NCBI RefSeq assembly: GCF_018476525.1
Contig: NZ_JAHCST010000008.1
Location: 62,001-126,000 of the forward strand
Source: Acrocarpospora catenulata
Lineage (GTDB): Bacteria > Actinomycetota > Actinomycetes > Streptosporangiales > Streptosporangiaceae
Length of the DNA stretch: 64,000 nt
Direction: 5' to 3'
Shown: positions 8,514-45,408 of the stretch, one piece after another
Layout: each line of letters begins with the position of its first letter
Numbering within the stretch: the first letter of the stretch is position 1
Notes under the pieces: generated by a model
Told to the model about the DNA's origin: nothing
Databases searched by the model: none
Seen by the model: only the letters and a program-made list of their open reading frames with translations
Made by a program: the position numbers and the translations under genes

Positions 8514-10364
8514 TCAACCCTCGAAGTGGCCTGGCTGGGCGTGCTCGACGGGGTCGCGATAGCCGGAGGCCTGGAGTTTGAACAGACGGGCGTACAGGCC
8601 GTTTCGTGCGATGAGCTCGTCGTGCCGTCCCACCTCGGCGAACACGCCGTCCTGAAGGACGGCGAGTGTGTCGGCGTGGCGGATGGCGCCGAGCCGGTGT
8701 GAGACGAGCACGCTCGTCTGGCCGGTTCGCAGGGCCGCTATGCGGGTGTGGACCTCGTGTTCCGCCTCCGCGTCCAGGCCGGAACTCGGCTCGTCCAGGA
8801 TCAGGAGATCACTGTCGCGCCGCAGCATCGCGCGGGCAAGTGCCACCCGTTGCCACTGTCCTCCGGAAAGGAAGACCCCGGTGTTCTCCTGATCGGACTC
8901 GTCGATGAACAGCCGGGTGAGCAGGGTTTCGTAGCCGCGGGGCAGGGATTGGAGCTTCTTGTCGATTCCCGCCTCGCGAGCGGCGGATTCGATGGCGAGC
9001 GTGTCCCGCATGAGGTCGAGCCGCCCGATCGCGATGTTCTCCCGTGCCGACATGTCGTAGGCCATGAAGTCCTGGAAAACGGCGCCTATCCTGGCTCTGA
9101 GTTCCGCCGGCTCGAAGTCCCTCAGATCGATTCCGTCCCAGGTGATGTGGCCCGCGGTGGGATCGTACATGCGGGTCAGGAGCTTCACTATCGTGGTCTT
9201 TCCCGCGCCGTTCAGGCCCACGAGTCCCATGGACGTCCCGGCCGGAATGTCGAGGCAGGCGCCTTGGAGAATCCAGGGATGGTCTTCGCTGTAGCGGAAC
9301 CAGACGTCGTGCAGCCTGATGCCTTGGGACAAGGAGGGGATCCGTGCGGGGTGTGGGGCCACGACGAGATCCGGTTCTGTGCTCTCGACGGCCAGGAAAC
9401 TCTTGAACAGCAAGATCTGCCCATGGGTTCGCGCCACTTCGCCGACGAGCGCGGCGAGGTGGCTCTGCGTTCCTGCCACGGCGGCGATGAACATCGAGAT
9501 GTCGCCGATCAGCAGAGCACCGTCGCGGGCGTGGATGATGGTCCAGACCAGACCGGTTCCCGCGATCAGCGCCGCCAACGTGCCAAGCGAGAGTTGGGTT
9601 ACGAGGTCACGCAGATCCAACTTCCTGTTCTCGGCATTGGCCGCCCGCCGCTCGGCGACCATCCGGGTGTGCAGGAAGGACCCGATGCCGAACAGGCGGA
9701 CCTCTTTCGCGGCCTGATCGTCGGTCATCAACTGCGCGTAGAAGATTTCCCGTCGTTCGAGCGGGCCCAGTTTCATGTGCATGGCGACCCGGCGCCGGGA
9801 AAGCGAAACCTCCGCCAGCAGGGTCGGCACCATGCTGGTCAGGATCACGCCTGCCATGATCGGGTTGAGGGCGAACAAGGATGCGACGAAACCCGCGGCG
9901 CCCAGGGCCGCTGCGGAGATGGACAGGAATCCCGAGAGGATCTGGCTGGGCGTGCGGCCGCCCATGGTCTGCGCCAGCCTCAGCTGGTTGAGGAAGGCGG
10001 GGTCTTCGAAGCGCGCGAGTCCCGGCAGCCGGTTGAGTGCGCCATACAGTCTGCTCTGGGCCGTCAGCGCAATCGATCTGTCCAGTTCCGATTGGCAGTA
10101 GCGGGCGCCCTCCGTCAGTGCCTTCGATGCCAGTCCCAGCGTCGCGAGCAGGGTCGCGAGAACGAGAACGGCTCTCGTCGGCTGGCCCAGCACGATGGCG
10201 TCCAGAATGAGTTTGGTCAGCCAGGCCGTGGTGACGGGTACTGCGGCGGTGCCCACGGCGATGAGCACCGCCAAAATGACGAGCCGTGACCTCGCCTGCC
10301 AGGCCAGGGAAAATGTCCTGGCCGTCATATGGGCGCTTTCTCGCATTGATTTCGGCCGGATCAT
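8514..10364 (-). CDS. ABC exporter of six-Cys peptide cassette 1
   Basis: A 616-aa half-transporter with five to six membrane helices, then an ATPase with Walker A GLNGAGKTT, signature LSGGQ, Walker B LLILDEPSSGLD and the H-loop VSHRLG. There is no N-terminal C39 peptidase, so leader removal must come from another enzyme, plausibly the operon's S26 peptidase. It is the last gene of cassette 1, 11 bases after the MauE-like gene; the ATG at 10364 has AAAGGA. It is clearly paralogous to the exporter at 33770-35587: both have near-identical VFQD-MAYD segments and the same acidic insertion just before LSGGQWQRVALARA. Likely role: export of the 68-aa cysteine-rich peptide. Confidence 0.85.
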   Translation of the reverse strand: MIRPKSMRESAHMTARTFSLAWQARSRLVILAVLIAVGTAAVPVTTAWLTKLILDAIVLGQPTRAVLVLATLLATLGLASKALTEGARYCQSELDRSIALTAQSRLYGALNRLPGLARFEDPAFLNQLRLAQTMGGRTPSQILSGFLSISAAALGAAGFVASLFALNPIMAGVILTSMVPTLLAEVSLSRRRVAMHMKLGPLERREIFYAQLMTDDQAAKEVRLFGIGSFLHTRMVAERRAANAENRKLDLRDLVTQLSLGTLAALIAGTGLVWTIIHARDGALLIGDISMFIAAVAGTQSHLAALVGEVARTHGQILLFKSFLAVESTEPDLVVAPHPARIPSLSQGIRLHDVWFRYSEDHPWILQGACLDIPAGTSMGLVGLNGAGKTTIVKLLTRMYDPTAGHITWDGIDLRDFEPAELRARIGAVFQDFMAYDMSARENIAIGRLDLMRDTLAIESAAREAGIDKKLQSLPRGYETLLTRLFIDESDQENTGVFLSGGQWQRVALARAMLRRDSDLLILDEPSSGLDAEAEHEVHTRIAALRTGQTSVLVSHRLGAIRHADTLAVLQDGVFAEVGRHDELIARNGLYARLFKLQASGYRDPVEHAQPGHFEG

Positions 10365-10375
10365 CGTGTCCTTTG

Positions 10376-10897
10376 CTAGGCGAAGAGATCTGCCAGGTCG
10401 TCCATCAGGACGACCAGAAACGACAGGACCAGTCCCGCGACAATGGTGATCCCTGTTCCTGCGGTCCACGGGCCAAGCCCGACGTCGGCGCTGAGCATGC
10501 CGACGACGGCCGCCACGGCAAGTAGGGTATTGCGCACGACGTGCCTAGTGGAGAATTCCGATGCCTGTCGTCCAAAGCAGTTGCAGGCCACGGAGCTGCC
10601 TCGGCGGATCACGGTGATAATCGCCGCATTGAATACCACGCAGAGCGCGGCGGGAAGGGCGAAGGCGTACACGAGCAGAGTCGAGCTCGTCATCAGGCCG
10701 AGCACTATCGACAGGACGGTGACCAGCTCGGCCGTGATTATCAGGAGTGCGACACTCGGTACGGCCCCGAGGGGCAGGAGCTGCATATTGCGGACCGAGT
10801 CCGTGAACGACGAGTAGTGGAGGATTTTGCCGACGCTCGAAGTAAGGAAGACGACGGCGAGTAGAGTTCCGCTGAATACGAGTAAATAGTCTGCCAT
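10376..10897 (-). CDS. MauE/DoxX-like redox membrane protein, cassette 1
   Basis: A 173-aa protein with four hydrophobic segments and a CNCFG motif (about residues 105-109) in a loop after the third segment, as in MauE-like proteins that shuttle electrons for periplasmic or extracytoplasmic disulfide chemistry. The start MADYLLVFSGTLLAVVFL leads straight into a membrane helix, followed by SSVGKILH, the family's conserved S-KL region. It lies 48 bases after the S26 peptidase gene and 11 bases before the ABC gene. With the thioredoxin-like neighbour it probably forms or isomerises disulfides in the six-cysteine peptide. The family assignment is good; the substrate is inferred from context. Confidence 0.8.
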   Translation of the reverse strand: MADYLLVFSGTLLAVVFLTSSVGKILHYSSFTDSVRNMQLLPLGAVPSVALLIITAELVTVLSIVLGLMTSSTLLVYAFALPAALCVVFNAAIITVIRRGSSVACNCFGRQASEFSTRHVVRNTLLAVAAVVGMLSADVGLGPWTAGTGITIVAGLVLSFLVVLMDDLADLFA

Positions 10898-10945: not shown

Positions 10946-11338
10946 TTATATTGTCAGCCGCCGTATCATTCGCCCCACTACTCGATCCATCGGTACGAAC
11001 CCGAAATGACGCGAATCCATACTGGACGGCAGGTTGTCGCCGAGAACGAATACATGGTCCGGCGGCACCACTCCCAGCCCGCCCGGGAATCGGTCGCCGG
11101 CGACGGCCGCGATCCGCTTGACGAGTTGCCCCGGCGAGTCGGGGCGTGTGATCACCACAACGTCGCCGCGCGCATAATTGGACGGACGGCGCGCGATAAT
11201 GACCCTGTCACCCGCGTTCAGGTGCGGGTTCATGCTCGATCCATGAACATGCACGACGCCGAACTTCCGGCGAAGCACGCCGAGGGTGGAAGCCAGACAG
11301 AACGCCACCGAGACAAGTGCTATGTAAGCAAGTTCCAT
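10946..11338 (-). CDS. S26 family signal peptidase, cassette 1
   Basis: A compact 130-aa single-pass signal peptidase. One N-terminal helix (YIALVSVAFCLASTLGV) precedes the catalytic box HGSSMNP (Ser before Met), the lysine box LVKRIAAVAGD and the C-terminal GDN-SMDSRHFG box, so all essential elements are present. I prefer the ATG at 11338, with GGGG 9 bases upstream, to the in-frame TTG three codons earlier, whose GGGG is too close. It follows the thioredoxin-like gene by about 40 bases. Its place in the operon and the AxA motif in the peptide leader suggest it is the dedicated leader peptidase, not the housekeeping LepB. Confidence 0.88.
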   Translation of the reverse strand: MELAYIALVSVAFCLASTLGVLRRKFGVVHVHGSSMNPHLNAGDRVIIARRPSNYARGDVVVITRPDSPGQLVKRIAAVAGDRFPGGLGVVPPDHVFVLGDNLPSSMDSRHFGFVPMDRVVGRMIRRLTI

Positions 11339-11377
11339 GGCAGGCAACCCCGGTCGAGCAGGTAGGCGGAAACAGGG

Positions 11378-11902
11378 TTACGCGGGTGTGTTGATTCTCG
11401 ATTCCGGGCCGATCTTCGGACTGGTCGCGAGCACGTTCCCGAATCCCACGGTGACGAAGACGGGGACTCCGGCGACACCGAACGCCCTGGCAACGGGCCC
11501 GTTCGGCTCTTCGATGAGAACAGGTCCCAGCGCCTCCAAAGTGGCCATGACGTCCCCGTCGTATACGCCGGAGAGTACGGACACGACTGTTCCCTTGTTC
11601 ATGGTCGCGTAGGAGATGAACGCCGGCATGGCCTCCTTGCAAGGGGCGCAGCCCGGCGAGAGGAAGGCGAACACGGTACCGAATTCGAGGGTGTCACGAT
11701 CGACCGTCACCCCCTGTGTGCTGGTGGCCATGAACTCGCCTACCGGAGTTCCCGGCGATGAGCTCAGCTGGAGGTCTCCAGCCTGGATGGGCGCCACTCC
11801 CGCGCCCCGCCCGACCTTTCGCGCGATACCCAGGATGAGCACCAGGTTGAGCAGAGTCAGACACAACGTCAGTATTAACAGACTTACCTGGAATGCGATC
11901 AC
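11378..11902 (-). CDS. TlpA-like thioredoxin protein, cassette 1
   Basis: A membrane-anchored thioredoxin-fold protein of about 174 aa from the GTG at 11902. An in-frame TTG at 11956 would add 18 residues, but the GTG puts the membrane helix (LLILTLCLTLLNLVLILG) at the very N-terminus, as in the paralogue at 35592-36131. The active site is CAPC in SPGCAPCKEAMP, and the cis-proline loop is VAGVPVFVTV. It would face outside the membrane and reduce or oxidise cysteines. It lies between the six-Cys peptide gene and the S26 peptidase gene, all in one direction. Confidence 0.8.
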   Translation of the reverse strand: MIAFQVSLLILTLCLTLLNLVLILGIARKVGRGAGVAPIQAGDLQLSSSPGTPVGEFMATSTQGVTVDRDTLEFGTVFAFLSPGCAPCKEAMPAFISYATMNKGTVVSVLSGVYDGDVMATLEALGPVLIEEPNGPVARAFGVAGVPVFVTVGFGNVLATSPKIGPESRINTPA

Positions 11903-12054
11903 AGTTCGGCCCCGGACGTAGATGGAGGTGGGGATTTCCGGACACCGGCACCGCAATCCATATCAGCATCACGATGCCGGGGATTCCAGCGATCAGATCA
12001 TCCCGCGAGAGCCGGCCGAACTACGATCACGGCAGCTCCTTGGGGTGATCGGTT

Positions 12055-12261
12055 TCAGCAGGTACCGCAGCCCAGGTCCGAGCTGTAGTAGTAGACGCCA
12101 CCGCCGCTGGGGTAACACCGGTAGGTGATCACTTTCCGGGAGTAGGTCGATGAGCAGTAGTAGCAGGAGGTGCTGTATACGGTGCAGGAGGCCGCTGCGT
12201 CTGATTCCGGAAGAACTGCCGACAGCAGTTCATCTCTGAAACGAGCCAAAGTGCGCTTCAT
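12055..12261 (-). CDS. six-cysteine secreted peptide precursor 1
   Basis: A 68-aa precursor with a strong GGAAGGAAG site before the ATG. The leader MKRTLARFRDELLSAVLPES is amphipathic, not a classical hydrophobic signal. It ends in DAAA|SC, giving an AxA motif at residues 22-24. The core (25-68) has six cysteines at 26, 33, 36, 49, 65 and 68, many Tyr/Ser/Gly residues, and ends GCGTC. The leader aligns with the precursor at 36268-36477 (M-RTL-R--D-LL---LP, then A-A at the same position), and both cores contain CYP. It is the first gene of the operon, with thioredoxin-like, S26, MauE-like and ABC genes after it. Likely a secreted disulfide-rich bacteriocin or signal; activity unknown. Confidence 0.85.
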   Translation of the reverse strand: MKRTLARFRDELLSAVLPESDAAASCTVYSTSCYYCSSTYSRKVITYRCYPSGGGVYYYSSDLGCGTC

Positions 12262-12428: not shown

Positions 12429-12479
12429 GGCTGAGCATCGGACACGCCGGTATAGATCGGGTATAGGCCCAGGTGGAAC
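12429..12479 (-). promoter_or_regulatory. SARP-type promoter block of cassette 1
   Basis: Two GGTATAG heptamers (12449-12455 and 12460-12466) are spaced exactly 11 bp. A 51-bp ungapped stretch matches 39054-39104, upstream of the SARP gene, at 43 positions. Read towards the peptide gene, the repeats are followed about 9 bases later by CGATGCTC, a possible -10. Heptamer repeats at 11-bp spacing just upstream of -10 are the usual SARP binding layout. It lies about 190 bases upstream of the six-Cys peptide ATG. Confidence 0.7.
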
Positions 12480-12814: not shown

Positions 12815-13504
12815 ATGGCAGGTGCGAGTGTGCTGGTGGTGGAAGACGATCCGGTGATCGGGGCGGAGCTGAGTGAGGCCCTCGACGTCAACGGGTACGC
12901 TGCCACGCTGGCCACTGATGGGCAGGCGGCGATTGAGAGGGCCCAGTCTGCTGCGCCTGATCTTGTTCTGCTGGATCTCGGGCTGCCTGACCTGGATGGT
13001 GTGGTCGTGTGCCGGAAGATCCGGCTTGCGGTGCCGGAGGCGGTGATTGTCGTTCTTACGGCGCGTACCGAGGAGCTCGATGTCGTGGTCGCCCTCGACG
13101 CGGGCGCCGACGACTACCTGACCAAGCCGTTTCGGCTGGCCGAACTGATGGCCCGCCTGCGTGCGCACATGCGCAGGCAGGCGGTGATCCCGCAGGAACG
13201 GATGCTGACCGTGGGCGCGCTGCGCCTGGACCTGGCGGCGCGGCGGGCTTTCCTCGACGGGACGGAGCTGGCGCTGCGGCCCAAGGAGTTCGATCTGCTG
13301 GCGGTTCTGGCGGGCAAGGCGGGGGAGGTCGTCACCCGCGAGGATCTGATGGACCAGGTCTGGGACGAGAACTGGTTCGGCTCCACCAAGACGCTCGACG
13401 TGCATGTGTTCGCGCTCCGCCGCAAGCTGGAGGAACCGCGCGTGGAGGGTGGGGCGCCGAGGATCACGACGGTCCGTGGGCGGGGCTACCGTTTCGAGCA
13501 ATGA
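12815..13504 (+). CDS. OmpR-family response regulator
   Basis: A 229-aa regulator. The receiver domain has acidic DD at 11-12, phospho-acceptor D54 in LLDLGLPD, T in VLTAR and K in LTKPF. The C-terminal winged helix (RPKEFDLLAVLAGKAGEVVTRE ending RGRGYRF) is typical. No clear ribosome site precedes the ATG, so translation may be leaderless. The partner is almost certainly the histidine kinase at 13580-14872, which converges on it. A 25-bp tandem repeat fills the gap. Likely target: the divergent lipoprotein/ABC operon from 14987. Confidence 0.92.
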   Translation: MAGASVLVVEDDPVIGAELSEALDVNGYAATLATDGQAAIERAQSAAPDLVLLDLGLPDLDGVVVCRKIRLAVPEAVIVVLTARTEELDVVVALDAGADDYLTKPFRLAELMARLRAHMRRQAVIPQERMLTVGALRLDLAARRAFLDGTELALRPKEFDLLAVLAGKAGEVVTREDLMDQVWDENWFGSTKTLDVHVFALRRKLEEPRVEGGAPRITTVRGRGYRFEQ

Positions 13505-33769: not shown

Positions 33770-35587
33770 CTAACCGCCGTTCCCCCGGGTGAGCTGGAAG
33801 TCGGCCGCCTGGCGGGTGAACAGGCGGGCGTACTCGCCGTCGAGGGCCATCAGCTGGTCGTGGGTGCCCTCTTCGGCGATCCGGCCGTCGGTGAGGACGA
33901 CGATGTGGTCCGCGCCGCGCACGGTGTTGAGGCGGTGGGAGATGAGCAGACTGGTACGCCCGGACCGGTAGTCGCGGAGTCGCTGGTGGATGGCGTGTTC
34001 GGCGTCGGGGTCCAGGCCCGAGCTGGGCTCGTCGAGGATGAGCAGGTCGGCGGTGTCGGCGCGGAGGAGGGCGCGGGCGAGGGCGACGCGCTGCCACTGG
34101 CCACCCGACAGGAGCACGCCCTGGCCGGGGTCCTCGTCCGGGTTGGCGGCGAAGAACCGCGACAGGATGGTGTCGTAGCCGCGGGGCAGGCTCATGAGTT
34201 TGTCGTGGATGTCCGCCCTGCTGGCCGCCTCGTGGAGCCGTTCCGGCTGGTCGAGGGAGTCGACGGCGCCGACGGCGATGTTCTCGGCGGCGGTGAGGTC
34301 GTAGGCCATGTAGTCCTGGAACACGGCTCCGATCCGGCGGCGCAGGCCGGCGATCCGCAGGTCGCGCAGGTCCGTGCCGTCCCATTGGACGCTGCCGCGC
34401 TCGGGGTCGTACAGGCGGCACAGCAGCTTGACGATGGTGCTCTTGCCCGCGCCGTTCAGGCCGACCAGGGCCACACTTCGCCCGTACGGGATGGTCAGGT
34501 TCACGCCCCGGAGCACGTAGGGGTGGTCGGCGTCGTACCGGAACCACAGGTCGCGGAGTTCGATGCCGCGCCGCAGCGGGGGCACGTCGCCGCCGGTGGC
34601 GGGTTCCGGCAGGTCGGGTCCGGCGGTCACGACGTGGGCGTAGTGGCCGGCCAGGACGAGTGCCTCGGTCAGATGGGCCAGCTGGACCACCATGCCGGAG
34701 AGGGCGGACTGGGTGCCCGCCACGGCGGCGGTGAGGACGGCCAGGTCGCCGATGCCGGCCTTGCCCGCCGCTATCCAGGAGACCAGCACGATCAGCGCGG
34801 CGCCCGCGATGATCGTGCTGAGAGCGGTCAGCGCTCCGTTGTAGCGGATGGCGGTCAGGTCCACCCGGCGTTCGGCCCGCTGCTGGGCGGCCAACTCGCC
34901 CAGCATGCGCCGGCGCAGGAAGTCGCCGATGCCGAACAGCCGGATCTCCTTGGCGGCCTGATGGTCGAGCATCAGCGTCTGGTAGAACATCCGGCGGCGT
35001 TCCGCGGGGGCCACCTCCCAGTTCAGGAGGGCGCGGTGGCGGCTGAGCCGGAGCTGGATGATCAGTTCGGGTACGGTGGCCGCGGCCACGACGGCGGCCA
35101 GCAGCGGGCTCAGCGTGGCGAGCGCGCCGAGCAGCCCGGTGATGGTGACACCGCTGCGGATCACGCCCAGCCCTGACTCGGTGATGAGCTGCGGGGCGGT
35201 CTGGGCGGACTGCTGGGCCATCTGGAGCCGGTCGTGGAACCGCGGGTTCTCCAGCCTGGTCAGCCCCTGCATGCGGCAGACGGCGGTGAACAGTTCGTCG
35301 CTGGTGTGCCAGACGATGCGGCGGTGCTGCTCCCGCTGGACGTACCCGGACAGGTGGGGCAGCAGCGCGGTCAGCGCTCCGAGTACGGCCATCGCGGCGG
35401 CCAGCGGGGTCGTCGAGGGGCCCACTCCGGCGGTCAGGCGATCGATCAGCAGTTTGGTCAGCCACGTGATCGCGACGGGGGAGGCGCCGGTCAGGACCGC
35501 CATGGCGAGCTGGGACAGGGCGAGTACGGGTCCGGCGCGCCAGACGAGCGCCAAGGTGAGCCGCAGCGGCCCGAGTCGTGACCTCAC
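33770..35587 (-). CDS. ABC exporter of six-Cys peptide cassette 2
   Basis: A 605-aa half-transporter: membrane domain (helices around residues 15-300), ATPase with Walker A GLNGAGKST, signature LSGGQ, Walker B LLILDEPSSGLD and H-loop ISHRLN. No C39 peptidase. It starts with GTG at 35587, four bases after the thioredoxin-like stop. It is paralogous to the cassette-1 exporter at 8514: both have AKEIRLFGIG/AKEVRLFGIG, VFQD-MAYD and an acidic insertion before LSGGQWQRVALARA. Likely exports the 69-aa six-cysteine peptide. Confidence 0.87.
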   Translation of the reverse strand: MRSRLGPLRLTLALVWRAGPVLALSQLAMAVLTGASPVAITWLTKLLIDRLTAGVGPSTTPLAAAMAVLGALTALLPHLSGYVQREQHRRIVWHTSDELFTAVCRMQGLTRLENPRFHDRLQMAQQSAQTAPQLITESGLGVIRSGVTITGLLGALATLSPLLAAVVAAATVPELIIQLRLSRHRALLNWEVAPAERRRMFYQTLMLDHQAAKEIRLFGIGDFLRRRMLGELAAQQRAERRVDLTAIRYNGALTALSTIIAGAALIVLVSWIAAGKAGIGDLAVLTAAVAGTQSALSGMVVQLAHLTEALVLAGHYAHVVTAGPDLPEPATGGDVPPLRRGIELRDLWFRYDADHPYVLRGVNLTIPYGRSVALVGLNGAGKSTIVKLLCRLYDPERGSVQWDGTDLRDLRIAGLRRRIGAVFQDYMAYDLTAAENIAVGAVDSLDQPERLHEAASRADIHDKLMSLPRGYDTILSRFFAANPDEDPGQGVLLSGGQWQRVALARALLRADTADLLILDEPSSGLDPDAEHAIHQRLRDYRSGRTSLLISHRLNTVRGADHIVVLTDGRIAEEGTHDQLMALDGEYARLFTRQAADFQLTRGNGG

Positions 35588-35591
35588 CCTG

Positions 35592-36131
35592 TCAGGTCCG
35601 GGACGGTACGGGCAGCCGCTCCAGCTTCAGGCTGCTGGCGGCGATGGTGGCGTCGGGGCCGACCAGGAAGAACGACGGGAAGGCCGTGACCGCGAACGCG
35701 TCCACCACCGCGCCACCCTCGCCCTCGACGACCACGCTCACGTCGTCCGTCAGCGCGGCGAGCAGGTTCGCGGGCTTCTCCTGGCCCTCCACCACCACCG
35801 CCAGCACCCGTACGCCGTCGGCCGCGGCCTCGCGGGCGGTGGCGGCGAAGGCGGGCGCCTTCGGCAGGCAGTGCCGGCAGTCGGTGCTGAAGAACCCGAC
35901 GAGGGTACGCTCGCCCGCGAAGTCGTCCGTGGTGACCTTGGTGTCCGTGGCGGTGAGCGCGGAGAAGGCCGGGATCTCGGCGCCCACGTCGAGGCCGGGG
36001 CTGACGGGAAGTCCCCCGGCGGGGGAGTCCTTGGTGATCTTTCGGAGTTTCCTGATGACCGCGCCGGTCAGGAGCAGGTTCACCAGCACGAGGCCGCCGA
36101 GCAGGATGACGGCGGCGACCAGGACGGCCAT
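35592..36131 (-). CDS. TlpA-like thioredoxin protein, cassette 2
   Basis: A 179-aa membrane-anchored thioredoxin-fold protein. One N-terminal helix (AAVILLGGLVLVNLLLTGAV) is followed by a redoxin domain whose active site is CRHC in FFSTDCRHCLPKAPAF. The cis-proline loop is VTAFPSFFLVG. The CRHC pair, different from CAPC of the cassette-1 paralogue, suggests a different redox potential. It lies between the six-Cys peptide gene and the ABC gene. Confidence 0.85.
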   Translation of the reverse strand: MAVLVAAVILLGGLVLVNLLLTGAVIRKLRKITKDSPAGGLPVSPGLDVGAEIPAFSALTATDTKVTTDDFAGERTLVGFFSTDCRHCLPKAPAFAATAREAAADGVRVLAVVVEGQEKPANLLAALTDDVSVVVEGEGGAVVDAFAVTAFPSFFLVGPDATIAASSLKLERLPVPSRT

Positions 36132-36267: not shown

Positions 36268-36477
36268 TCAGCAGTAGCCGATGTTCTGCCAGGGGCTGCT
36301 GCAGCTGGGACGGTGGTACTTGATGCAGAGAAAACCCGTCGGGTTGGGGTAGCACTCCCGGTACCGGGTGCAGCCACCCGTCACCCAGTACTCGAAACAG
36401 TTGTCGGCCTGCGCTTCGGCTCCGGGAAGGAGTCGTTCGAGCAGCCGGTCTCCCAGGCGGTTCAGCGTGCGGATCAT
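36268..36477 (-). CDS. six-cysteine secreted peptide precursor 2
   Basis: A 69-aa precursor; the ATG at 36477 has AAGGGAG. The leader MIRTLNRLGDRLLERLLPGA parallels precursor 1 at the same residues (RTL, R, D, LL, LP) and ends AQA|DNC, an AxA motif at residues 22-24, exactly as in precursor 1. The core has six cysteines at 27, 36, 42, 51, 59 and 69, contains ECYPNPTG (compare RCYPSGGG) and ends with Cys. Spacing differs from precursor 1, so the folds need not match. The thioredoxin-like and ABC genes follow on the same strand; an S26 peptidase is divergent. Confidence 0.85.
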   Translation of the reverse strand: MIRTLNRLGDRLLERLLPGAEAQADNCFEYWVTGGCTRYRECYPNPTGFLCIKYHRPSCSSPWQNIGYC

Positions 36478-36548
36478 GCGTGCTCCCTTCACTGATTCGG
36501 GCGGGGAGGCCGCCCGCCCTGTGAGGATGCTCGGCGCGGCCTTCGCCA

Positions 36549-36604
36549 CGGTTGCGGCCGATCCGGGTACGCCGCAACCGGACGCGCTACCACGGCGCAA
36601 CCGG
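36549..36604. promoter_or_regulatory. inverted and direct GCCGCAACCG repeats
   Basis: CGGTTGCGGC (36549-36558) and GCCGCAACCG (36571-36580) are perfect inverted copies; a third near-copy, GGCGCAACCGG, lies at 36594-36604. They sit between the divergent six-Cys peptide and S26 genes and are candidate operators for cassette 2. Confidence 0.5.
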
Positions 36605-36649
36605 GCCGTCGCAGAATCCCGATCGGCAGCCCAGGCCGAAAGGTTGATC

Positions 36650-37090
36650 ATGCAAGCGATTCTGTTGTCGTCGCTGGTCGTGGTCGCGGTGGCGATCGTG
36701 GCCCGGCGCCGCTTCGTCGTGGTACGGGTGGCGGGGACGAGCATGGTTCCGACGTACCAGCCGGGAGATCGGGTCCTGGTACGGCGCGGCGCGCAAGCGG
36801 CCCTGCGGCGCGGTCAGGTGGTGGTCTTCCGGCGGGTCGAGCCGGGCGGCGCGTCAAGACCTGCCCCCCGGCTGCGTGAGACGGAGTGGCTGATCAAGCG
36901 GATCGCCGCGATGCCGGGTGACCGGGTGCCCGACCAGGTCACGGCGGGTGTGCGTGCCGCGCCGGGAGATCTGGTCCCGGCCGGCCGGCTGGTGGTGCTC
37001 GGCGACGGCCCCACCAGCCGGGATTCGCGGGACTGGGGTTACCTGCCGGTGGAGGAGGTGCTGGGCGTCGTCATGCGCAGGCTGTCGTAG
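36650..37090 (+). CDS. S26 family signal peptidase, cassette 2
   Basis: A 146-aa single-pass peptidase: helix LLSSLVVVAVAIVA, catalytic box AGTSMVPTY, lysine box WLIKRIAAMPGD and final GD-PTSRDSRDWG box, so active-site Ser and Lys are present. ATG with AAAGG. It is divergent from the six-Cys peptide gene, 172 bases apart, and converges on the SARP gene. It is the counterpart of the S26 enzyme in cassette 1 and probably cuts after the AxA motif of peptide 2. Confidence 0.88.
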   Translation: MQAILLSSLVVVAVAIVARRRFVVVRVAGTSMVPTYQPGDRVLVRRGAQAALRRGQVVVFRRVEPGGASRPAPRLRETEWLIKRIAAMPGDRVPDQVTAGVRAAPGDLVPAGRLVVLGDGPTSRDSRDWGYLPVEEVLGVVMRRLS

Positions 37091-37096
37091 CCAGCG

Positions 37097-38983
37097 TTAG
37101 GAACACCGCGCGAGCAGCGCGCCCAGGACACGGGCGATCGCCTTGTCCCGGTCGTCGGGGGTTTCCTCCAGTTCGGCGCGTTCCCGTGCGTAGAGCCGCA
37201 CCAGATCATGGCAGCGGTAGCGGAACCGTCCGTCCCCGTCGCTGCCCTCGCAGGTCAGCAGCTGGGCGTCCACCAGCCGATCGGCGCAGGTCTCCGCCTC
37301 GGACACGGGGACGTCGAGGGCCGCCGCGAGCACCCAGGCGGCGAAGGCGGGGGCGTCGAGCAGGCCGAGCAGGCGCAGGGCCCGCCGGGAGGTCTCGTCG
37401 AGCATGCGGTAGTCGGCGGCCAGGCTCGCCCGTACCGACAGGTCGCCGATGGCGAGCTCCGCCAGGCGTTGCCGCTCGCCGCGCAGGCGGTCCGCCAGGT
37501 GTTCGAGGCGCCAGTGCTCGCGTAGCGCCAGTTTCGCCCCGGCGATCCTGATCGCCAGGGGAAGGTGGTCGCAGAGCCGCAGGATCTCGGCGGCGACCGC
37601 GGGCTGGGCAGCCACCCGGTCCGGCCCGGCGATGCGCGCGAGCAGCGCCGACGCGGATGCCGGGTCGAGCGTGCCGACGCGTGCGGACCGGGCGCTCAGT
37701 CCGGCCAGCCTGCGCCTGCTCGTCACCAGCACGGCGCAGCTCGGACTGCCCGGCAGGAGCGGCCTGACCTGCTCCTCGCTCGCGGCGTTGTCCAGCACCA
37801 CCAGCACGCGGCGCGGGGCCAGGAGGGCACGGAACAGTTTTCCGCGCTCCTCAAGCCCGTACGGCACCGCCCGCTCGTCCACGCCGAGGGCGATCAGAAA
37901 GTGCGCCAGCGTCTCGGCCGGGTCGCTCGGGCACGGGCAGGTTCCGTTCAGGTCGATGTAGAGCTGGCCGTCGGGGAACGTCTCCCGCAGGCGGTGGGCG
38001 ACGTGGACGGCGAGCGTCGTCTTGCCGGCGCCCGCCCTGCCGTACAGCGCGACGACCGGCATCGTGTGGCCCGCGCCGGTGAGCGACAGGCGCAGCGACG
38101 CGGCCATCTCGTGCCGGCCGGTGAAGTCCGCGATGTTCGGCGGCAGATGGCACGGCGCGACCGCCGTGGGCCCGATGCACGCCTCGTCTTCGGCAGGGAG
38201 ATGGGCCGCCCCGTCCAGCCCGAGGATCTCGTCGACGACCTCGGCCGGGTCGCCCCGCAGGATCGCCTCGTGCATCCGCTGCAGCATCCAGCCGGGCTCC
38301 ACGCCGAGTTCCTCGCCCAGCACGGTTCGCGTCCGCTGGTAGACCCGTAACGCCTCGGCCTGGCGCCCGGCGTGGCAGAGCGCCAGCATCAGACAGGCGT
38401 GCAGCCGTTCCCGGTACGGATGCAGCTCGGCCATCTCGGTCAGGCCGGTGACCAGCTCCGCGTGGCGGCCCAGGGCCAGGTTGACGGCGGCCAGTTCCTC
38501 GTGGGTGAGCAGCCGCTCCTCCTCGAGCCGCCGCGCCTCGTCCGCCACCAGCGCCGCGTCCCCGATGTCGGCGTACGCGGGCCCCCGCCACAGGTCCAGC
38601 GCACGCTGGAACAACGTCCCCGCCCTCGGCAGATCCGCCTTCCTCCTGGCGGCCCGCCCCGCCGCCGTGAGCTCGTGGAAGCGCAGCGCGTCCAGCTCCG
38701 GCGGCAGCACGGTGGCGGCGTAGCCACCGGTGCCGTGGACGATGCGGTCGTGCTCGCCCATCGCCTGCCTGAGCCGCAGCACGTACACCTGAAGGGTCTT
38801 GTGCGCGCTGCGCGGCGGATCGTTCCCCCACAGGGCCTCGATCAGCGTCGGCACCGCCACCGGCCGGCCCGGCGTGCACAGCAGGGTCGCCAGCAGGCGT
38901 CGCAGCATCGCCGCGCCCAGCGGGACGGGCACCCCGTCGCGGCTCGCCCGCAGCGGCCCGAGAACGTCGAACTCCAACAACAT
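37097..38983 (-). CDS. SARP/AfsR-family regulator
   Basis: About 628 aa. It has an OmpR-like DNA-binding domain (about 5-90; ALWGNDPPRSAHKTLQVYV), a BTAD helical domain (about 97-245; RFHELTAAGR...RLHACLMLALCHAGRQAEALRVY) and an NB-ARC-type NTPase with Walker A GRAGAGKTT and VLVVLDNA (Walker B). The C-terminal TPR domain of full AfsR is mostly missing. I start at the ATG 38983, which has GAGGGG, not at 39028. Such SARPs activate secondary-metabolite and peptide clusters by binding heptamer repeats. A promoter with these repeats lies upstream, and an identical block precedes cassette 1. A CebR-like operator sits between. Confidence 0.9.
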   Translation of the reverse strand: MLLEFDVLGPLRASRDGVPVPLGAAMLRRLLATLLCTPGRPVAVPTLIEALWGNDPPRSAHKTLQVYVLRLRQAMGEHDRIVHGTGGYAATVLPPELDALRFHELTAAGRAARRKADLPRAGTLFQRALDLWRGPAYADIGDAALVADEARRLEEERLLTHEELAAVNLALGRHAELVTGLTEMAELHPYRERLHACLMLALCHAGRQAEALRVYQRTRTVLGEELGVEPGWMLQRMHEAILRGDPAEVVDEILGLDGAAHLPAEDEACIGPTAVAPCHLPPNIADFTGRHEMAASLRLSLTGAGHTMPVVALYGRAGAGKTTLAVHVAHRLRETFPDGQLYIDLNGTCPCPSDPAETLAHFLIALGVDERAVPYGLEERGKLFRALLAPRRVLVVLDNAASEEQVRPLLPGSPSCAVLVTSRRRLAGLSARSARVGTLDPASASALLARIAGPDRVAAQPAVAAEILRLCDHLPLAIRIAGAKLALREHWRLEHLADRLRGERQRLAELAIGDLSVRASLAADYRMLDETSRRALRLLGLLDAPAFAAWVLAAALDVPVSEAETCADRLVDAQLLTCEGSDGDGRFRYRCHDLVRLYARERAELEETPDDRDKAIARVLGALLARCS

Positions 38984-39007
38984 CACCCCTCGCGAGGCCC
39001 AGTCGTG

Positions 39008-39021
39008 TGGGAGCGCTCCCA
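39008..39021. promoter_or_regulatory. CebR-type operator TGGGAGCGCTCCCA
   Basis: A perfect copy of the 14-bp palindrome recognised by the cello-oligosaccharide repressor CebR of streptomycetes. It lies 25 bases upstream of the SARP ATG and downstream of the SARP promoter block, so a repressor here would block transcription. Confidence 0.85.
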
Positions 39022-39053
39022 TCTTCATGAAGCCCGCTTCTCTTCGCGTGCTT

Positions 39054-39104
39054 GGCCGAGCATCGAAGACGCCGGTATAGGTCCGGTATAGGTCCTGGTA
39101 GAAC
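39054..39104 (-). promoter_or_regulatory. SARP-type promoter block of the SARP gene
   Basis: GGTATAG at 39074-39080 and 39085-39091, spacing 11 bp, in a 51-bp block that matches 12429-12479 at 43 positions. Read towards the SARP gene, the repeats precede CGATGCTC at the same distance as in cassette 1. Suggests autoregulation by the SARP. Confidence 0.7.
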
Positions 39105-42992: not shown

Positions 42993-45086
42993 TCAGCTGG
43001 TGGTGCCGGTGACCGTGGAGCCCGACTTGGTGATGTAGTAGTTCACGGTCGTGCCGCTCCAGAAGTGGAAGGTGAGCGTCACCCGCTGGCCGTCGTTGAC
43101 CTCGCCGAAGAAGTCCGGCTTCAGGGTGATGGTGTTGGAGCTGTAGTTGGGTGCGAACGTGACGTCGAACTCCTTGAACGACGTCCAGTTCTGGGGGCCG
43201 GCGTTGGTGCCGTTGGCGTACTTGGCCTCCATCGTGGCGAGCTGGTCACCCCTGAACTGGGTGGGGATGGTGAAGTTGCCCGTCACGCCGGTCGAGTTCT
43301 GCAGGATCGGCGTGTCGTAGCTGAGGATGTCGATCCGCCACGGGACGCCCTGGGAGAACCTGGCCGACAGCGTCGCGTTCACGCCGTACGCGCGGGAGCC
43401 CGTCAGCCGGGTGAGCGCCGAGGCCGTGAGGGTGAGCTGGCTGCCCGAGACGGTGTAGTCGGTGCCGTTCACCAGATCGGTGCTGCCCTGCCTGAGGCCC
43501 TGGAACGTGGTGCCGTTCAGGTTCAGCGTGAGCGTCTTGCTGCTGATGGCGGACGACCTCGCGTTGTACACCTGGTCCGAGGAGGCCGTGCCCGAGCGGG
43601 TCGTCCAGCTGGACTTGATCTGCCCGAACAGTTCGGGGTCGGACCACTGGAACGAGGTGCGGCCGAAGTGCTGGCCGTTGTCCCACAGCATGGTGGTGAG
43701 CTGCCGGAACCTGGCGTAGTAGCCGAGGTACTCGAAGAACTTCAGTTTCTCGCCCTGCTCGATCGTGCCGGTGTGGCGGTCGAAGCCCAGCAGGCCGTAC
43801 TCACCGATGATCACGGGGATGCCGCGGGCCACGAAGGCGTTGTACGCCCGGTCGAACTGGTCGATCAGGTCCTGCTGCACGGTGGCGTCGAAGCGGGTGC
43901 CGCCGGCGATGTTCACGCTGAACGGCCAGTATCCGTAGAAGTGCACGGTCGCGACGAGGTTGGGGTCGTTCATCGCGTTGAACGTGGTGACCAGCTCGTT
44001 GAGCCTGGCCTGGTCGGCCGAGGTGTGCAGGGTCGGCAGGACCAGGAGCCGGGTCGCGTTGTTGCCGCCCGACTGGCGGACGATGTTCCGGAAGGACGTG
44101 TTGAGCTCGTTCAGCAGCGTCGCGTTCTGGGCGTCGCCGGAGCTGCCGGTGAACTGCGGCTCGTTGACGCTCTCGAAGAGCAGCTTGGCGGAGGAGTTCC
44201 GGAACGTGGTGGCGATCTGGGTCCAGGTCGCGTTGTAACGGGCGAGGACGTTCGTCCGGTCGCCCGGCATGTTGTTGATCCACTGCCAGGAGTCGTGGTG
44301 GATGTTGATCATTACGTAGAAGCCCTCGGCGAGGGCCCAGTCCACGACCTCTTTCACCCGGTTCATGTGCGTCGCGTTGATGGTGTAGCTGGGCGCGCCA
44401 CCCTGGTACTGGCCCCAGGTCACCGGGATCCGGATGCTGTTGAAGCCCTGCGCCTTGATGTTGCGGAGCAGCGCCTGCGTGATCTGCGGGTTGCCCCATG
44501 AGGTTTCGCCGCTACCGGTGGCGTCGAGGGAGTTGCCCAGGTTCCAGCCGGGCTGCATCGCGGCCACGATGGCGCGCGCGTTGCCGGGCGGCGGGGTCGG
44601 CGTGGGCGTCGGGGTCGGTGTCGGGCTGGGCGTCGGGGTTGGGGTCGGGGTGGGTGTCGGGGATGGCGTGGGGGTGGGGCTCGGCGAGCCGCCGCAGGTC
44701 ACGCCGTTGAGGGTGAAAGTGGTCGGGTTGGTGTTGGTGCCGGTGTAGCTGCCGTTGAAGCCGACGGTGATGCCGGCTCCCGATCCCAGGCCAGGGGCCC
44801 ATCCCGGGGCGGTCACCGTCACGTTCGCGCCCGACTGGGTCCAGGTTCCGCTCCAGCCGTCGGTGACCCGCTGGTTACCGGGCCAGGTATAGCGCAGCGT
44901 CCACGGGCTGACCGCGTCGCCGAGGTTGTTGATCGTGATGTTGGCGCCGAATCCGCTGCCGTTGTCCCAGGCCTTGGTGTAGGTCACGGAACAGGCGACC
45001 GCCGCTTGGGCCGGGGCGACGGTCACCCCGATCGCGGCCAGCAGCGCCGCCGCTGTGGACAGAGTCCATAAACGCAGTCTCTTCAC
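42993..45086 (-). CDS. secreted cellulase, CBM2 + GH5 + C-terminal Ig-like/CBM46 domains
   Basis: 697 aa from a GTG at 45086 with GGAGG upstream. A signal peptide ends near AQAA|VACSV. The CBM2 (about 30-135; TWPGNQRVTDGWSGTW carries the binding tryptophans) binds crystalline cellulose. A Pro-Thr-Ser repeat linker of about 30 residues follows. The GH5 domain (about 190-480) has acid Glu in FESVNEPQF and nucleophile Glu in IIGEYGLLG. The last 200 residues form an X2-like Ig domain and a CBM46-like beta-domain (WTSFKEFDV). An endoglucanase of beta-1,4-glucans. A CebR-type box lies 36 bases upstream. Confidence 0.93.
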   Translation of the reverse strand: MKRLRLWTLSTAAALLAAIGVTVAPAQAAVACSVTYTKAWDNGSGFGANITINNLGDAVSPWTLRYTWPGNQRVTDGWSGTWTQSGANVTVTAPGWAPGLGSGAGITVGFNGSYTGTNTNPTTFTLNGVTCGGSPSPTPTPSPTPTPTPTPTPSPTPTPTPTPTPPPGNARAIVAAMQPGWNLGNSLDATGSGETSWGNPQITQALLRNIKAQGFNSIRIPVTWGQYQGGAPSYTINATHMNRVKEVVDWALAEGFYVMINIHHDSWQWINNMPGDRTNVLARYNATWTQIATTFRNSSAKLLFESVNEPQFTGSSGDAQNATLLNELNTSFRNIVRQSGGNNATRLLVLPTLHTSADQARLNELVTTFNAMNDPNLVATVHFYGYWPFSVNIAGGTRFDATVQQDLIDQFDRAYNAFVARGIPVIIGEYGLLGFDRHTGTIEQGEKLKFFEYLGYYARFRQLTTMLWDNGQHFGRTSFQWSDPELFGQIKSSWTTRSGTASSDQVYNARSSAISSKTLTLNLNGTTFQGLRQGSTDLVNGTDYTVSGSQLTLTASALTRLTGSRAYGVNATLSARFSQGVPWRIDILSYDTPILQNSTGVTGNFTIPTQFRGDQLATMEAKYANGTNAGPQNWTSFKEFDVTFAPNYSSNTITLKPDFFGEVNDGQRVTLTFHFWSGTTVNYYITKSGSTVTGTTS

Positions 45087-45121
45087 TTCAAGCCTCCATG
45101 GAAGGAGCTCCCGGGTCAGGT

Positions 45122-45135
45122 CGGGAGCGCTCCCA
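45122..45135. promoter_or_regulatory. CebR-type operator of the GH5 gene
   Basis: CGGGAGCGCTCCCA, one base off the CebR consensus palindrome (first T is C); the central 12 bp are a perfect palindrome. It lies 36 bases upstream of the GH5 GTG. Confidence 0.8.
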
Positions 45136-45408
45136 TGTTTGGCGTGATCACCCGTAGGTGTACAGGACGTTTCCCCAGGCTGCTCCGCTGACCTGCTCCT
45201 GCGCATGAAGCGTTCATCGGAGGTAAGAAAGTTTCAGCTGCGGGTGATGGCGTGGCCGCCGGTGAAACATTCACCGGGAGCGTGCTGCCCGCCGTGGCTT
45301 GACCTGCGCCGGTGAAGATTTCTATCTGCAGGTGTTTCCTGTGAAGAGACGCAGATTTACGGTAACTCCGTTTCCATTCGGAAAACGGTCGATCGCATCG
45401 AAATTTCG

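What the first reader, a model, noticed from the sequence alone, without database searches (positions are those of the whole stretch)
12429..12479. Shared 51-bp SARP promoter block links the two loci
43 of 51 positions match between 12429-12479 and 39054-39104 with no gap. Both hold two GGTATAG heptamers at 11-bp spacing and then a common GAGCATCG (minus strand CGATGCTC) at the same distance. Surrounding sequence does not align. SARP proteins bind such heptamer repeats next to -10. The SARP gene lies beside cassette 2, so it should activate cassette 1 and itself.
Basis: partly seen in the sequence, partly recalled or inferred. Interest (0 to 1): 0.8.

Follow-up and report, generated by a model that had tools for sequence, protein, structure and literature searches.

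The report
Shared SARP-type promoter of peptide cassettes
The repeated 51-base block is a real on-switch of the kind read by SARP activator proteins: in this soil bacterium it sits in front of a small cysteine-rich peptide operon, an activator gene and five other loci, and relatives from about nine genera carry it, often beside other activator genes.

Summary
In detail: 43 of 51 positions match, ungapped, with unaligned flanks. Read on the minus strand, the coding strand of both genes, it is a complete promoter: CTATACC-N4-CTATACC-N9-GATGCT. The GAGCATCG tag is the -10 element. The genome has 7 such sites. The exact pattern occurs in 30 of 297 genomes of the family; the backwards control occurs in none. 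29 of 64 sites lie within 450 bp of a SARP gene start (chance about 0.3% each). In eight relatives the SARP start codon lies exactly 7 nt after the -10. If that is +1, the repeats fall at -40 to -19, where AfsR binds the afsS promoter. So a SARP-type promoter is well supported. Autoregulation of the window SARP is likely: in one relative its own promoter is the genome's only CTATACC site. A third site in the window (36585-36617, +, cassette-2 signal peptidase) was missed. The claim that this SARP drives cassette 1 is weaker: a same-genus genome keeps cassette 1 and its site but lacks this SARP, and carries another SARP (C46 type) with the site at its own gene. Known kind of promoter, new heptamer and regulon. 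Nothing here shows binding.

The parts
12449..12466 (-). Cassette-1 SARP-type operator: CTATACC (12466-12460), CGAT, CTATACC (12455-12449)
   Evidence: conserved upstream of orthologous cassettes in G106, G127 and, degenerate, G027
12434..12439 (-). -10 element GATGCT of the cassette-1 promoter; predicted +1 about 12426
   Evidence: A at position 2 and T at position 6 are fixed by the search pattern; the remaining letters, which were free, are conserved in 56 sites; position of +1 inferred from leaderless SARP promoters
12472..12478 (-). TTCCACC, degenerate third half-element one turn upstream (PWM consensus TNCNACC)
   Evidence: PWM of 56 sites: A 46/56, C 51/56 at the key columns; role inferred
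12055..12261 (-). 68-aa Cys/Tyr-rich precursor peptide, first gene of cassette 1
   Evidence: orthologs 78-81% identical in G127 and G106
11378..11956 (-). TlpA/MauD-like thioredoxin protein, cassette 1 (start uncertain)
   Evidence: weak NCBIfam MauD match; BLAST match to TlpA relatives
10946..11347 (-). S26 signal peptidase, cassette 1
   Evidence: Pfam PF10502 5e-26
10376..10897 (-). MauE/DoxX membrane protein, cassette 1
   Evidence: Pfam PF07291 1.5e-21
8514..10469 (-). ABC exporter, cassette 1
39074..39091 (-). SARP-gene operator: CTATACC (39091-39085), GGAC, CTATACC (39080-39074)
   Evidence: conserved in Microbispora-type orthologs L136, L138, L139, L141 and, with one mismatch, L240 and L243
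39059..39064 (-). -10 element GATGCT of the SARP promoter; predicted +1 about 39051
39097..39103 (-). TTCTACC, degenerate third half-element
   Evidence: role inferred
37097..39028 (-). SARP (OmpR-type DNA-binding domain + BTAD + NB-ARC), 643 aa, lacking the C-terminal TPR half of its orthologs
   Evidence: Pfam PF03704 1.5e-42, PF00486, PF00931; AfsR is the top solved structure; truncation
36585..36617 (+). Third SARP-grammar promoter in the window: CGCTACC-ACGG-CGCAACC-N9-CAGAAT, in front of the cassette-2 S26 gene
   Evidence: 0 expected by shuffles; conserved in L201, L202, L204, L241; in genome G199 the grammar occurs only here and at the SARP promoter
36524..36556 (-). Weak candidate of the same grammar facing the cassette-2 precursor: CGCAACC-GTGG-CGAAGGC-N9-CATCCT
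   Evidence: conserved in the alignment of 7 cassettes; coordinates
36268..36477 (-). 69-aa Cys-rich precursor peptide, cassette 2
36650..37090 (+). S26 signal peptidase, cassette 2 (divergent)
35592..36131 (-). TlpA-like thioredoxin, cassette 2
   Evidence: Pfam AhpC-TSA 7e-13
33770..35587 (-). ABC exporter, cassette 2
   Evidence: 45% identical to the cassette-1 exporter

Best explanation
The block is an activator-dependent promoter read by SARP-family proteins. Two SARP protomers sit side by side on the CTATACC direct repeats, taking the place of a -35 element, and recruit RNA polymerase to the GATGCT -10. Transcription runs leftward into the cassette-1 precursor operon (+1 about 12426) and into the SARP gene (+1 about 39051). 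The window SARP most likely activates its own gene and, through the weaker CGCTACC/CGCAACC repeats at 36585-36617, its own cassette 2. Cassette 1 has joined the same operator regulon, which at least one other SARP (C46 type) can probably read, so its regulator may be that SARP, the window SARP, or both. Shown: sequence, architecture, conservation, linkage to SARP genes. Inferred: binding, the TSS, activation, and which SARP acts where. The confidence given is for a SARP-read promoter; I put autoregulation of the window SARP at about 0.7 and its action on cassette 1 at about 0.5.
For: Architecture: 11-bp direct repeats with the 3' repeat 8-9 nt from the -10, the rule stated for SARP promoters in PMC10936776. 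Conservation: exact pattern in 30/297 genomes and 9 genera, 0 backwards-control hits. Bases left free in the search are conserved: GNCGTGTCCGATGCT downstream and ACCAGGG upstream. SARP linkage: 29/64 sites within 450 bp of a SARP start, against about 0.3% expected per site, binomial about 1e-54 if sites were independent; about eight SARP lineages in the tree. TSS: in L107, L111, L119, L121, L124, L125, L126 and L129 the SARP ATG is exactly 7 nt after the -10; taking ATG as +1 puts the repeats at -40 to -19, identical to the AfsR afs box (PMC10936776). Autoregulation: window-type SARPs in four genomes of one genus carry the site at their own promoter; in G215 it is the only site within 2 mismatches, and G215 has no C46-type SARP; in G199 the generalised grammar occurs only at the SARP and S26 promoters. 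Protein: AfsR is the top structure hit, aligned over the whole DNA-binding and BTAD region.
Against: No binding or transcript data. DNA-contact residues differ between the SARP lineages that carry the same site: AfsR positions 88/92 are V/R in the window SARP, T/T in C46 type, L/Q in C112 type, so some may be targets rather than readers. Cassette 1 keeps its site in G127, which lacks the window SARP. In G172, G148, G083 and G162 the C46-type SARP has no good site at its own gene. About 7 of the 64 sites have poor context and may be chance.
Confidence: 0.85

Rival explanations
1. Another SARP of the genome, the C46 type (G000:C46) or the C112 type, is the real reader of CTATACC at cassette 1, and the window SARP gene is itself one of its targets (a cascade), the window SARP reading only the CGCWACC variant in cassette 2.
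For: C46-type SARPs carry the site at their own promoter in G000, G106 and G127, exactly the genomes with an intact cassette-1 site. G127 has cassette 1 without the window SARP. The cassette-2 promoters carry a different heptamer.
Against: G215, G199, G193 and G220 have the CTATACC site at the window-type SARP but no C46-type SARP, and in G215 that is the only site, so the window type must be able to use it or some unidentified reader must exist.
Confidence: 0.45
2. An OmpR/PhoP-type response regulator, which can also use 11-bp direct repeats, reads the site, for example the one encoded at 12815-13504 next to cassette 1.
For: An OmpR-type regulator starts about 380 bp from the cassette-1 site, and a PhoP site overlaps the AfsR site at afsS (PMC10972967).
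Against: No homolog of that regulator is found by the cassette-1 sites of G106 and G127; only 4 of 64 fetched loci hold any OmpR-type match, none within 350 bp, against 29 with a SARP within 450 bp.
Confidence: 0.05
3. The two blocks are a recent duplication of a promoter fragment with no shared regulation.
For: The two cassettes are paralogous (exporters 45% identical).
Against: Flanks do not align; each site is separately conserved with its own gene in other genomes and genera; five further sites exist in the genome.
Confidence: 0.02
4. CTATACC...GATGCT is the recognition sequence of an alternative sigma factor rather than an activator operator.
For: A fixed spacing to a -10-like box would also fit a sigma factor.
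Against: Two identical copies one helical turn apart, a degenerate third copy upstream, three copies in the related G199 cassette-2 promoter, and the SARP linkage.
Confidence: 0.04

Closest known systems
AfsR / afs box of the afsS promoter, Streptomyces coelicolor (PMC10936776; PDB 8hvr, 8jke, 8k60)
   Same: SARP domain with NB-ARC; two 11-bp direct repeats; same predicted register to the start site (-40 to -19); weak -10, no proper -35
   Different: Heptamer CTATACC instead of the CGTT(T/C)ATCG repeat; site at SARP genes themselves, secreted lectins and Cys-rich peptide cassettes instead of afsS; window SARP lacks TPR
Small SARPs with heptamer repeats (ActII-ORF4, DnrI, FdmR1 as reviewed in PMC10972967)
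   Same: Heptamers with short spacers overlapping -35; sometimes three repeats; cluster-situated activator
   Different: Those sites are described as pathway-specific; here one operator is linked to about eight SARP lineages
PimR (SARP-LAL) operator of pimM (PMC3367932, PMC5930380, as reviewed in PMC10972967)
   Same: Heptameric direct repeats with 4-nt spacers
   Different: Different heptamer and targets; PimR drives a PAS-LuxR regulator gene

Membership tests
SARP-dependent promoter | Direct repeats of about 7 bp at 11-bp (or 22-bp) period | tested here: met
SARP-dependent promoter | 3' repeat 8 bp from the -10 element | tested here: met
   9 nt from CTATACC, 8 nt if the heptamer is taken as TATACCG, whose final G is required by the pattern; rule from PMC10936776
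SARP-dependent promoter | Repeats at -40 to -19 relative to the start of transcription | tested here: inconclusive
   met if the leaderless ATG in eight SARP relatives is +1; no transcript data
SARP-dependent promoter | Bound by a SARP and activated by it | not testable with these tools
   needs gel shift, footprint or reporter assay
SARP protein family (gene 37097-39028) | OmpR-type DNA-binding domain followed by BTAD | tested here: met
   PF00486 and PF03704; alignment to AfsR structures 8hvr and 8k60
AfsR orthologue | Full NOD and TPR domains, score above the NCBIfam AfsR cut-off | tested here: not met
   NF053617 527.6 bits against cut-off 1430; TPR half missing

The most novel reading that the evidence does not exclude
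One operator, CTATACC-N4-CTATACC-N9-GATGCT, is shared by about eight SARP lineages in Streptosporangiaceae-type actinomycetes, so that SARPs cross-activate one another and a common set of secreted lectins and Cys-rich peptide cassettes, instead of each SARP owning a private cluster-specific heptamer.
Probability: 0.4. Interest if true: 0.6.

Novelty: new member of a known kind. Interest (0 to 1): 0.45.

Why it matters
It gives a precise, searchable operator for SARP regulons outside Streptomyces, with a predicted start of transcription, and links two uncharacterised Cys-rich peptide cassettes to named activator genes. Overexpressing one SARP could switch on several silent loci at once. It also offers a direct test of whether SARPs share operators across lineages. 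The site-linked SARPs never have serine at AfsR position 91, which 20 of 26 other SARPs of this genome have; this is a post hoc hint at the specificity code.

Tried and rejected
Direct reading by the neighbouring OmpR-type regulator was rejected because it is not found with cassette 1 in relatives. The C119 paralogous cassette has no CTATACC site and its SARP is split between frames. A scan for the general grammar upstream of more distant SARP relatives gave few and mostly GC-rich hits, judged chance, apart from a possible CGCACAG repeat in Goodfellowiella, L256. Searching papers for MauE with RiPP gave one general paper. Matching recognition-helix residues to the heptamer gave no simple code. 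No structure prediction was run: it would not model protein-DNA recognition.

Full report
Check of the observation. The two blocks match at 43 of 51 positions with no gap, and neither flank aligns. Other equally similar 51-mers in the window are a tandem repeat and a stretch inside two paralogous exporter genes, so this is the only such pair in promoter position. Both genes beside the blocks run on the minus strand, so the block should be read there: CTATACC-N4-CTATACC-GGCGTSTYC-GATGCT.

What lies downstream. Block 1 precedes a 68-aa Cys/Tyr-rich peptide (12055-12261), followed by a TlpA-like protein, an S26 signal peptidase, a MauE protein and an ABC exporter. Block 2 precedes a 643-aa SARP with an OmpR-type DNA-binding domain, BTAD and NB-ARC. 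The SARP is followed by a paralogous cassette with a second Cys-rich peptide, TlpA, exporter and a divergent S26 peptidase.

Genome-wide picture. The whole 10.3-Mb genome holds seven such sites: the two here, one at the promoter of another SARP (C46), one between a SARP and a coaBC-like gene (C112), and three at secreted proteins, two of them ricin-lectin-like by inspection. Below these seven the matches degrade to background.

Family-wide picture. The exact pattern occurs in 30 of 297 genomes and 9 genera; the pattern read backwards occurs in none. I fetched 64 sites. Bases that the search left free are conserved: ACCAGGG upstream, TC-C in the spacer, CGTGTCC and the GATGCT letters. Upstream there is a degenerate third element, TNCNACC. 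29 of the 64 sites lie within 450 bp of the start of a SARP gene, on the same strand or divergently. With 38 BTAD matches in this genome the chance for a random place is about 0.3%, so the enrichment is extreme even allowing for relatedness. In the tree the site-linked SARPs fall in about eight lineages and are clustered (6 changes against 18.5 in shuffles).

Promoter geometry. In eight relatives the SARP start codon stands exactly 7 nt after the -10 box, which implies leaderless messages starting at the ATG. With that as +1 the two 11-bp repeats occupy -40 to -19. This is the position of the afs box bound by the AfsR dimer in the solved transcription complex, and the same paper gives 11-bp repeats with the 3' repeat 8 bp from the -10 as the common rule (PMC10936776). 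The spacing here is 9 nt counted from CTATACC or 8 nt counted from TATACCG.

Autoregulation of the window SARP. Orthologs in another genus (G220, G215, G193, G199; the nearest named relatives are Microbispora) keep the site at the SARP promoter next to the same cassette, and with one mismatch so do M. catharanthi and M. bryophytorum. M. amethystogenes lacks it. In G215 it is the only site in the genome within two mismatches, and that genome has no C46-type SARP. Generalising the heptamer to CNNWACC gives a third match in the window, at 36585-36617 on the plus strand, in front of the cassette-2 S26 gene; shuffles give none. It is conserved in orthologs, with three tandem copies in G199. In the whole of G199 the generalised grammar occurs twice, at the SARP and at this S26 promoter; in G000 it occurs four times, three of them in this window. 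The heptamer was generalised after seeing the cassette-2 alignment, so the window count alone is post hoc; the G199, G215 and G220 recurrences are the stronger part. This ties the SARP to its own cassette.

Does it drive cassette 1? Cassette 1 with an intact site is also in G106 and G127. G127 has no orthologue of the window SARP; its best match is 50%. Both genomes have a C46-type SARP with the site in its own promoter. So another SARP must be able to read cassette 1 in G127, and in the window's genome both could. The window SARP as activator of cassette 1 is plausible but not singled out. The OmpR-type regulator next to cassette 1 is not conserved there.

Limits. Everything is comparative sequence evidence; no binding, no transcript. 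The sites are not independent, since many are orthologous. The position-91 signature (never serine in site-linked SARPs, serine in 20 of 26 others; Fisher 0.0002 by eight lineages, 0.008 by four) was found after the fact. Family membership in the sense 'SARP-dependent promoter' is met on architecture and untested on binding; the regulator itself is a SARP but not an AfsR orthologue by the NCBIfam cut-off.

Noticed in passing
37097-39028: The window SARP is 643 aa; orthologs are 1052-1130 aa. The C-terminal TPR half is gone while the junction to the S26 gene is kept. The AfsR paper reports an inhibitory effect involving the domains outside the SARP domain, so this copy may be deregulated.
   Followed up: partly
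G000 contig C119 (L041/L042): A third paralogous peptide cassette (69-aa Cys-rich precursor, TlpA, exporter) beside a SARP split between two frames, without CTATACC site.
   Followed up: partly
L105, L112, L130, L132, L133, L134, L150, L151 just after the -10: Several target transcripts would begin with a similar head, roughly CCCGAGCCG-N4-CGGCTTCG, able to form a stem; a possible shared 5'-UTR element.
   Followed up: no
L158/L205 (G027:C65): Next to a SARP 61% identical to the window SARP there is CTAAAAC-N4-CTAAACC followed by CATGCT, on the strand opposite to the SARP: possibly a diverged heptamer of the same grammar.
   Followed up: no
L045, L048, L106, L116: Ricin-lectin-like secreted proteins are recurrent targets of the site in several genomes of the genus.
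   Followed up: no
44583-44684: Imperfect short-period tandem repeat inside the cellulase-like ORF 42993-45206.
   Followed up: no
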